From Patescibacteria group bacterium (GTDB taxonomy: Bacteria; Patescibacteriota; Minisyncoccia; JAHIHE01; JAGLIN01): 35,321 nt of DNA. A program made the position numbers and the translations under genes. The DNA is taken from the NCBI GenBank assembly GCA_019428855.1, contig JAHYJV010000011.1, forward strand, positions 1 to 35,321, in the 5' to 3' direction. Shown here in pieces: positions 32,697-34,639 of this stretch. How positions within the stretch are numbered: the stretch's first letter is position 1; each line of letters opens with the position of its first letter. The notes beneath the pieces are model-generated. The model was not told the DNA's origin. It saw only the letters and a program-made list of their open reading frames with translations, and did no database searches.

Positions 32697-33794
32697 TTAT
32701 AAAGCTTCTTTTTCATAATTAACGCCGATTTTTTCCTTCACTTCTTTCATTGTTTTTTGCGCAATAACTCTGGCTTTTTCGGCTCCTTCTTTTAATATTT
32801 TTATTACTTCTTTCGGATTACTTTCAAGTTCTTTTCTTCTTTCACGGAATGATTTGAAGTGATTGGTGATGTCTTCGGCGAGGGTAGTTTTTAATTCAGA
32901 GAATTTTATAGTATTATTTTTAAATTTCTCAGAAAAATATTTTTGATGCTCTAGTGTACCAAAATTATCTAAGAGCATATTGAAATTTACAACACTATGA
33001 GCCGCTATTTTGTTTTCTATACTGTTCTCATTTCCTTCTATATAACTTATTTTTATGTGACCTAAATTATTATAACCTAACTCTAATACTCCCAAGTCAA
33101 CTAATTCTTTAAAATCTGAAACTGACATTGCTTTTCTCACCTTTTTTTGAATAACTTCTGGTTCGTCATTAATTGCGATATAAGATTTTGGTCCCGAAGA
33201 TTTACTCATCTTTTTCGTTGGGTCAAGCAGACTCATAACTCTCGGAGTTTTCGTGATTAAATATTTCGGTTCAGGGAAAGTCTCACCAAATTTATTATTG
33301 AAAAAGCGAGCAATTTTACGAGTGAGCTCCACATGTTGAATTTGGTCTTGTCCTACTGGCACGGTAGAAGATTTATACATCAAAATATCTGCCGCTTGCA
33401 AAACGGGATAATCAAGCAATCCCATATTAATATTTTTATCTTGTTGTTGTGACTTGTCTTTGAACTGGGTCATTCTTTGTAACTCGGCAAGGGGAGTGAT
33501 GGTATTGAAAATCCAAGCCAGTTCGGTATGCTCTGGAACTTGTGATTGCACGGCAATGGTGCATTTTTTGGGATCAAGTCCAATTGCCAAAAAATCAAGA
33601 GCCAAACCTATAATCTGTTTTTTCTTTTCAGTTGGATTATATTCTCCTGAAATGGAATGATAATCTGCAATAAAAAAATAGCATTTGTATTCTTCTTGAA
33701 GCTTTACAAAATTTTTGAGAGCTCCTAGATAGTTCCCAATATGCAATTCCCCCGAAGGCTGAATTGCACTGAAAATAGTTTGTTTTTTTGTCAT
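32697..33794 (-). CDS. trpS: Tryptophanyl-tRNA synthetase
   Basis: 'IFSAIQPSGELHIGNYLGALKNFV', 'DYPVLQAADILMYKSSTVPVGQDQIQHVELTRKIARFFN', KMSKS motif 'DPTKKMSKSSG'. Confidence 0.98.
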   Translation of the reverse strand: MTKKQTIFSAIQPSGELHIGNYLGALKNFVKLQEEYKCYFFIADYHSISGEYNPTEKKKQIIGLALDFLAIGLDPKKCTIAVQSQVPEHTELAWIFNTITPLAELQRMTQFKDKSQQQDKNINMGLLDYPVLQAADILMYKSSTVPVGQDQIQHVELTRKIARFFNNKFGETFPEPKYLITKTPRVMSLLDPTKKMSKSSGPKSYIAINDEPEVIQKKVRKAMSVSDFKELVDLGVLELGYNNLGHIKISYIEGNENSIENKIAAHSVVNFNMLLDNFGTLEHQKYFSEKFKNNTIKFSELKTTLAEDITNHFKSFRERRKELESNPKEVIKILKEGAEKARVIAQKTMKEVKEKIGVNYEKEAL

Positions 33795-33925: not shown

Positions 33926-34237
33926 TTATATCCCCGCCCTTCTTAACATGGTTTTTCCGCTGTTGTTTGTTTTGTAAAATTCTTTTTTACATTCTGGACT
34001 TTTACATTTCTGGACTATTCCAAATCCGAAAGGATACTTTTCAATTGGTTCTAATTTTCCTCCACAAGCTGGACAGATGATTTCATTGTTACTGTTCATT
34101 TTATTTTCTCTGTCACAATTCGTACAATGTTTCGTATATGTTATTTTTTCTCCGAATTTTCCTTCCTGTTTGGTTGTAATTATATCTATGGATTCACCAC
34201 AAGTTGGACACTTTAAATTTAGGTTTTCTCCTGCCAT
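33926..34237 (-). CDS. Zinc-ribbon protein with four Cys-pair motifs
   Basis: CPTC, CTNC, CPAC, CKSPEC; RBS-like GAGGTG upstream of ATG at 34237 (track start at 34246 is a GTG inside the SD region). Confidence 0.75.
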   Translation of the reverse strand: MAGENLNLKCPTCGESIDIITTKQEGKFGEKITYTKHCTNCDRENKMNSNNEIICPACGGKLEPIEKYPFGFGIVQKCKSPECKKEFYKTNNSGKTMLRRAGI

Positions 34238-34281
34238 TATATTCACCTCGTCTTTTATATTTGTTTGTATTTTTGAGAAAT

Positions 34282-34566
34282 AAAAAAACTTCTCGTCTTT
34301 GAATACATAAAAACATTATGTATGCAAGGACGAGAAGTTTCCCGTGGTACCACCTTGATTGTTTGAGGTCATCACTAACAAAAAAATCTGCTAGATAGCG
34401 GACCTCAAACCACTTTACCGACTCTGACCCTTGCAAGAGCAAGACGACATCAGTTTATCCCATGATTACGGGGGAGACCGGATTTCCACTAGAGCAGAAA
34501 TCATCCTTTCGCAAGATATTTGCGAAGAAACTAGACCCAGCCCCGAACTATAAATTCGAGATCTAG
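34282..34566 (-). promoter_or_regulatory. T-box leader (antiterminator plus terminator) with candidate short Stem I
   Basis: Minus strand has AAGGTGGTACCACGGGAAACTTCTCGTCC (T-box/antiterminator) then terminator AACTTCTCGTCcttgcATACATAA tgttt TTATGTATtcaaaGACGAGAAGTTTTTTT; 10-bp stem GTTTGAGGTC/GACCTCAAAC upstream of it. Confidence 0.88.
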
Positions 34567-34611
34567 CTTATGGATTTTATGATTATGCAAAGAACATTTA
34601 TTTCTGAGATA

Positions 34612-34639
34612 AGAATAGCACATATATTTTTTATGTCAA
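34612..34639 (-). promoter_or_regulatory. Sigma70-like promoter of the T-box transcript
   Basis: Minus strand TTGACA, 16 nt, TATTCT about 45 nt upstream of the candidate Stem I. Confidence 0.6.

What the first reader, a model, noticed from the sequence alone, without database searches (positions are those of the whole stretch)
34282..34639. T-box riboswitch with an apparently minimal Stem I and candidate UGG specifier, upstream of a zinc-ribbon gene and trpS
Seen: minus-strand promoter, then leader with canonical T-box sequence (AAGGTGGTACCACGGG...CTCGTCC) and a mutually exclusive strong terminator. The 5'-most helix CTAGATC/GGTCTAG encloses a short hairpin CTCGAA-UUUAUAG-UUCGGG and an asymmetric 3' bulge GCUGGG holding UGG at 34537-34539. 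That matches a Trp specifier, and trpS is the second downstream gene. Established: T-boxes are best known in Firmicutes/Actinobacteria and usually have a long Stem I; ultrashort Stem I forms are known for actinobacterial ileS translational T-boxes. A transcriptional T-box with a minimal Stem I in a CPR-like genome would be unusual. Inference: the specifier assignment and Stem I fold.
Basis: partly seen in the sequence, partly recalled or inferred. Interest (0 to 1): 0.85.

Follow-up and report, generated by a model that had tools for sequence, protein, structure and literature searches.

The report
Trp-sensing T-box with tiny Stem I
Upstream of a tryptophanyl-tRNA synthetase operon in a tiny, uncultivated bacterium lies an RNA switch that very probably reads uncharged tryptophan tRNA with a much shorter "arm" than textbook switches that work by stopping transcription, and dozens of relatives show this short form is widespread in the candidate-phyla bacteria.

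Summary
The T-box is real: Rfam RF00230, 44.5 bits, E 3e-8 (below Rfam's 93-bit cut-off), no Stem I aligned. It is a transcriptional, tRNA-Trp-specific T-box: promoter, 36-nt Stem I, stem II, IIA/B pseudoknot, stem III, UGGN antiterminator and a competing -25.6 kcal/mol terminator. A genome-wide pattern taken only from stem II and IIA/B found 82 loci, nearly all in Patescibacteria. Their Stem I, not used in the search, varies with heavy compensatory change (12 of 13 pairs; covariation score 0.865 against 0.305 shuffled), while UGG stays fixed in the side bulge. Genes downstream include trpS, trpE, trpB and trpD. All 15 tRNA-Trp genes examined have G73, matching UGGC or UGGU. Correction: T-boxes are common here (126 of 380 sampled genomes of the phylum). 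The surprise is a Class IV-like Stem I without an elbow-binding module in a transcriptional T-box, with a side hairpin in place of the K-turn and an extra helix before stem III. The same genome has Gly and Thr T-boxes that also lack stem II. New variant of a known kind; no bench evidence.

The parts
34612..34639 (-). sigma-70-like promoter TTGACA-16-TATTCT with TG before the -10
   Evidence: 10 of 12 consensus matches; a similar promoter at the same place in the homologues L006-L011
34572..34575 (-). 5' strand of the closing helix (AUCC), pairs with GGAU 34506-34503
   Evidence: 4-bp pairing in 67 of 74 Trp-type leaders against a mean of 50 and a maximum of 59 in shuffles; compensated sets such as AUCC/GGAU, ACUC/GAGU, AUUC/GAAU, GCCU/AGGC, UCUC/GAGA
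34531..34566 (-). minimal Stem I, 36 nt: base helix CUAGA/UCUAG, side bulge with specifier, distal hairpin
   Evidence: 42 distinct homologues: 98.0% of cells paired, 12 of 13 pairs with compensatory change, covariation score 0.865 against 0.305 shuffled
34537..34539 (-). specifier UGG (Trp codon), followed by G34536
   Evidence: UGGG in 78 of 79 distinct parsed Stem I elements although the helices on both sides vary; pairs with the CCA anticodon of the genome's tRNA-Trp
34508..34526 (-). side hairpin UUCGCAAAUAUCUUGCGAA, at the junction of the closing helix and Stem I
   Evidence: present with variable length and sequence in 61 of 76 Trp-type leaders; the other 15 have a short K-turn-like junction
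34503..34506 (-). 3' strand of the closing helix (GGAU)
34481..34502 (-). stem II: GAUUUC/GAAAUC with conserved UGC...AGUG apical part
   Evidence: conserved across the Trp-type leaders; accepts insertions in the loop (L011, L130)
34458..34480 (-). stem IIA/B pseudoknot with F-box: CGG/CCG helix, loop UCCC pairs with GGGA
   Evidence: compensated loop-tail pairings in relatives, e.g. GUCU/AGAC (L124), GCCUU/AAGGC (L138), AUUCU/AGAAU (L102)
34417..34454 (-). extra helix with conserved internal loop UGUC/GAG, between the pseudoknot and stem III
   Evidence: closing 5 bp paired in 93.9% of cells against 81.1% shuffled, maximum 86.1%; goes with the side-hairpin form, 45 of 61 against 1 of 15, Fisher p 2e-6
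34361..34410 (-). stem III, preceded by AAGUG and followed by AA
   Evidence: RF00230 alignment and minimum-free-energy fold
34325..34357 (-). antiterminator CAAGG-[UGGUACC]-ACGGG...CUCGU-CCUUG
   Evidence: RF00230 alignment; -8.8 kcal/mol, overlaps the terminator
34346..34352 (-). T-box bulge UGGUACC; the UGGN base U faces G73 of tRNA-Trp as a wobble (C in about half the relatives)
34282..34339 (-). intrinsic terminator, 11 outer pairs and U-tract
   Evidence: -25.6 kcal/mol; a hairpin plus T-run follows the T-box in 74 of 75 Trp-type loci
33926..34237 (-). first gene: 103-aa double zinc-ribbon protein
   Evidence: Pfam DZR E 1e-4, below the curated cut-off
32697..33794 (-). second gene: trpS, tryptophan-tRNA ligase
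   Evidence: TIGR00233 304 bits against a cut-off of 177

Best explanation
It is a transcription-attenuating T-box riboswitch for tRNA-Trp. RNA polymerase starts near 34605 and makes the leader. The UGG in the side bulge of the short Stem I pairs with the CCA anticodon of tRNA-Trp, held in place by stem II and the IIA/B pseudoknot (inferred from the N. farcinica ileS structures). When the bound tRNA is uncharged, its 3' end pairs with the UGGU bulge and stabilises the antiterminator, so the zinc-ribbon gene and trpS are transcribed. When it is charged, the stronger terminator forms. With no tRNA-elbow module, affinity probably comes from the stem I-stem II groove, perhaps helped by the side hairpin and the extra helix. 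Shown here: elements, covariation, specifier and discriminator agreement, gene context. Inferred: tRNA binding and antitermination.
For: RF00230 match; 12 of 13 Stem I pairs compensated in 42 homologues; UGGG fixed in 78 of 79, mostly in loci selected by a pattern that did not include Stem I; trpS, trpE, trpB and trpD genes downstream; all 15 tRNA-Trp genes examined G73, T-box UGGC or UGGU; Thr and Gly T-boxes all UGGA, matching U73; terminator in 74 of 75.
Against: No bench data. The score is below Rfam's curated cut-off. In the window the UGGN base is U, a wobble with G73. A good promoter match (TTGATA-17-TATAAT, 33898-33870, 11 of 12) lies between the zinc-ribbon gene and trpS, so trpS may be only partly under T-box control. 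Some Trp-type loci have first genes of unknown function or lead to tyrS.
Confidence: 0.93

Rival explanations
1. A T-box with another specifier (for example a codon in the UUUAUAG apical loop) or a degenerate one that reads a different tRNA.
For: The UGGN base is U in the window, which prefers A73.
Against: The apical loop is not conserved in sequence or length; UGG is the invariant part and the downstream genes are Trp genes. UGGU is also common in relatives whose tRNA-Trp is G73.
Confidence: 0.04
2. The T-box acts on translation or through a protein; the terminator is incidental.
For: Known short-Stem-I T-boxes (Classes III and IV) mostly act on translation (PMC10482949).
Against: The terminator is strong, overlaps the antiterminator and follows the T-box in 74 of 75 relatives; the Shine-Dalgarno sequence at 34249 lies downstream of the terminator hairpin, not inside it.
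Confidence: 0.04
3. A decaying remnant of a canonical T-box that lost its long Stem I.
For: Low Rfam score; several close relatives in the family lack a detectable T-box.
Against: Strong compensatory conservation of the short form across many families of the class and its neighbours.
Confidence: 0.02

Closest known systems
Class IV T-box (Actinomyces odontolyticus ileS; class definition in PMC10482949)
   Same: Stem I of reduced length without the interdigitated double T-loop module; [quoted passage not shown] stem II and IIA/B pseudoknot present
   Different: Class IV mostly acts on translation; this one has a transcription terminator, reads Trp, has a side hairpin at the Stem I base and an extra helix before stem III
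Class III T-box (Nocardia farcinica ileS)
   Same: short Stem I without elbow module, reliance on stem II; 15 of the Trp-type relatives have a K-turn-like short junction and a few hold UGG in an apical loop (UAAAUGGG, UGAUUGGG)
   Different: specifier of the window element is not apical; transcriptional; Trp
Class I T-box (B. subtilis tyrS)
   Same: transcriptional attenuation, stem II, IIA/B, stem III, UGGN antiterminator, aminoacyl-tRNA synthetase target
   Different: about 36-nt Stem I instead of about 100 nt; no distal T-loop module
Class II T-box (B. subtilis glyQS)
   Same: the Gly and Thr T-boxes of the same genome also lack stem II and IIA/B
   Different: those also lack the long Stem I; the window element has stem II and IIA/B

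Membership tests
T-box riboswitch (RF00230) | covariance-model match | tested here: met
   44.5 bits, E 3.3e-8; below the 93-bit curated cut-off
T-box riboswitch (RF00230) | UGGN bulge in an antiterminator, variable base complementary to the tRNA discriminator | tested here: met
   UGGUACC 34352-34346; G73 in tRNA-Trp gives a wobble here, Watson-Crick (UGGC) in about half the relatives
T-box riboswitch (RF00230) | specifier codon cognate to the regulated amino acid | tested here: met
   UGG fixed; trpS, trpE, trpB, trpD downstream
T-box riboswitch (RF00230) | response to uncharged tRNA | not testable with these tools
   needs an in vitro antitermination or binding assay
Class I transcriptional T-box | long Stem I with distal double T-loop module (elbow contact) | tested here: not met
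   36-nt Stem I; none of the model's Stem I positions filled in the RF00230 alignment
Class IV T-box | short or intermediate Stem I without T-loop module, specifier in a side bulge between two helices | tested here: met
Class IV T-box | mostly translational control | tested here: not met
   terminator overlapping the antiterminator; terminator in 74 of 75 relatives
Class III/IV T-box | stem II and IIA/B pseudoknot | tested here: met
   compensated pseudoknot pairings; pseudoknot-like F-box in 20 of 20 Trp leaders
Class III/IV T-box | K-turn at the base of Stem I | tested here: not met
   a side hairpin sits at that place in the window and in 61 of 76 relatives; whether it bends the RNA in the same way cannot be told from sequence

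The most novel reading that the evidence does not exclude
Patescibacteria hold a large, hitherto undescribed set of transcription-attenuating T-boxes that dispense with tRNA-elbow recognition: a Class IV-like Trp form with a three-way junction and an accessory helix, Class III-like Ile, Asp and Asn forms, and Gly and Thr forms reduced to a specifier hairpin plus antiterminator, lacking both the T-loop module and stem II. The last would be a new structural class and would show that neither of the two known affinity aids is indispensable.
Probability: 0.6. Interest if true: 0.85.

Novelty: new variant of a known kind. Interest (0 to 1): 0.72.

Why it matters
Reviews hold that transcriptional T-boxes generally need a long Stem I that grips the tRNA elbow, because binding must be fast (PMC7583486). 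A conserved transcriptional T-box without that grip makes this directly testable. It also shows that starvation sensing by tRNA is probably common in a phylum with very small genomes, and that the standard Rfam cut-off misses most cases (none of 384 genomes sampled in the class passes it).

Tried and rejected
Anti-TRAP analogy: the first gene is a small zinc-ribbon protein, as with the tRNA-Trp-controlled anti-TRAP of B. subtilis (from memory), but none of the 20 genomes searched, the window's included, has a TRAP match over the Pfam cut-off. MicroRNA matches on the terminator hairpin are chance hits on a long perfect hairpin. A pairing of UC with the GG of the specifier was considered; the alignment shows instead that C closes the distal helix and only U pairs, with the G after UGG. 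Two first attempts at a tRNA-Trp pattern had a wrong spacer and mostly hit non-tRNA sequence; the corrected one worked. The original Actinobacteria paper (PMID 25583497) is not held.

Full report
What is there. On the minus strand of the window a promoter (34639-34612) is followed by a leader that ends in a strong terminator (34339-34282) just before a 103-aa zinc-ribbon gene and trpS. Rfam's T-box model matches 34521-34323 with 44.5 bits, E 3.3e-8, from stem II to the T-box; none of the model's Stem I positions finds a counterpart. The leader is far more stable than shuffles (z -6.3). The genome (0.98 Mb, 52 contigs, 100% complete) has two more T-boxes: before glyS (L002) and before thrS (L003).

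Homologues. RF00230 finds seven such Trp leaders in the window's family, its own included, and 74 of 384 genomes of the class have T-boxes at E<=1e-4, none over Rfam's cut-off. Over the phylum it is 126 of 380, 13 over the cut-off. A pattern made only from stem II and the IIA/B pseudoknot found 82 loci in 84,980 genomes. All are named as Patescibacteria groups or as unassigned bacteria, except two contigs of one bin called Lysobacteraceae, probably misbinned. Matching contig lengths (G007:C17 = JAGLJF010000024.1, Candidatus Paceibacterota; G275:C21 = MFSE01000021.1, Moranbacteria; G172:C30 = JACRAK010000012.1, Azambacteria) place the window's class with Paceibacteria (inference).

Stem I. Because the pattern did not touch Stem I, its conservation is an independent test. 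92 leaders (79 distinct) could be parsed: UGGG in 78 of 79, UC on the 5' side in 75 of 79. The one exception is a mis-parse (L112/L220; by eye it too has UGGG). The others not parsed are cut short (L215), have a large insertion (L160, L011; UGG present) or have a mismatch (L165, L191, L225; UGGG present by eye). On 42 aligned sequences, 98.0% of cells pair; 12 of 13 pairs change on both sides; the covariation score is 0.865 against 0.305 for shuffles and at most 0.177 for slid partners. RNAalifold independently gives the same fold, with the five-base side bulge R-Y-U-G-G between a base helix and a distal helix. A further 4-bp helix closes the domain (67 of 74 against at most 59 in shuffles).

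Specificity. UGG reads tRNA-Trp(CCA), present in the genome. Genes under Trp-type T-boxes include trpS, trpB, trpD-like and trpE; in one lineage a small zinc-ribbon gene and tyrS follow. The UGGN base agrees with the discriminator across the class: Thr 15 of 15 and Gly 12 of 12 UGGA, with U73 in this genome's tRNAs; Ile 24 of 25 UGGU with A73; Asp/Asn mostly UGGC with G73; Trp 39 UGGC and 34 UGGU with G73 in all 15 tRNA-Trp genes examined. For the other T-boxes of the class, a hairpin loop holding the codon of the downstream synthetase occurs in 54 of 68 leaders against 31 expected and at most 44 in 5000 label shuffles.

Mechanism. The antiterminator (34357-34325, -8.8 kcal/mol) and the terminator (-25.6 kcal/mol) share CUCGUCCUUG, so without tRNA the terminator should win. 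A terminator hairpin with T-run follows in 74 of 75 relatives. The IIA/B pseudoknot is kept by compensated pairings. So by anatomy it works as a transcriptional T-box; tRNA binding itself is inferred.

What is unusual. In the four-class scheme of PMC10482949, Classes I and II are transcriptional with a long Stem I and elbow module; Classes III and IV have a short Stem I and mostly act on translation. The window element has a Class IV-like Stem I in a transcriptional T-box. At the base of Stem I, where the K-turn is expected, 61 of 76 relatives have a side hairpin. Those carry an extra helix with a UGUC/GAG internal loop between the pseudoknot and stem III in 45 of 61 cases, against 1 of 15 in the K-turn-like form (p 2e-6, not corrected for relatedness). 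Its role is unknown; a docking or tRNA contact is a guess. Gly and Thr T-boxes of the class lack the pseudoknot (0 of 12 and 14 of 15 without it) as well as a long Stem I. Canonical long-Stem-I T-boxes also exist in the class (L005, L060, L089; by eye).

Literature. No paper in the held library joins T-box riboswitches with Patescibacteria, the candidate phyla radiation or Parcubacteria; most subscription papers are not held, so priority is not established. TBDB (PMC7778990) searched its short-Stem-I model in Actinobacteria and applied it to class I hits with a truncated Stem I.

Caveats. trpS may also have its own promoter (33898-33870). Relatedness of sequences inflates counts. E-values of RF00230 for single weak hits (about 1e-5) are modest, though their gene and codon agreement supports them. 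Gene names of relatives rest on Pfam for one representative per cluster and on sequence inspection.

Noticed in passing
L002 (G000:C8:3238-3355), L003 (G000:C43:13193-13316): The same genome has very small T-boxes before glyS (loop CCUGGAAA, codon GGA) and thrS (loop ACUAACCAA, codon ACC), with no long Stem I and no stem IIA/B pseudoknot; the same holds for nearly all Gly and Thr T-boxes of the class.
   Followed up: partly
window 34454-34417 and relatives: Extra helix with conserved UGUC/GAG internal loop, found almost only together with the Stem I side hairpin.
   Followed up: partly
window 33926-34237; L184, L228, L210, L219, L224, L163, L227: Small zinc-ribbon proteins of different families are repeatedly the first gene after a Trp T-box, often ahead of trpS or tyrS; function unknown, no TRAP partner found.
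   Followed up: partly
L168, L181, L185, L191, L198, L207, L209, L212: A recurrent two-gene set under the Trp T-box: an amidoligase-like protein followed by an AstE/AspA-like deacylase; possibly a tryptophan-related pathway not known to me.
   Followed up: no
L005, L060, L089: T-boxes with a canonical-looking long Stem I (AGCGAGC...GGUGAAAGC) in the same class, ahead of genes that are not obvious synthetases.
   Followed up: no
L174, L217 (JAACEG01, 'Lysobacteraceae OTbin.42'): Two contigs of a bin named Lysobacteraceae carry this Patescibacteria-type T-box; probably a misbinned or contaminated assembly.
   Followed up: no
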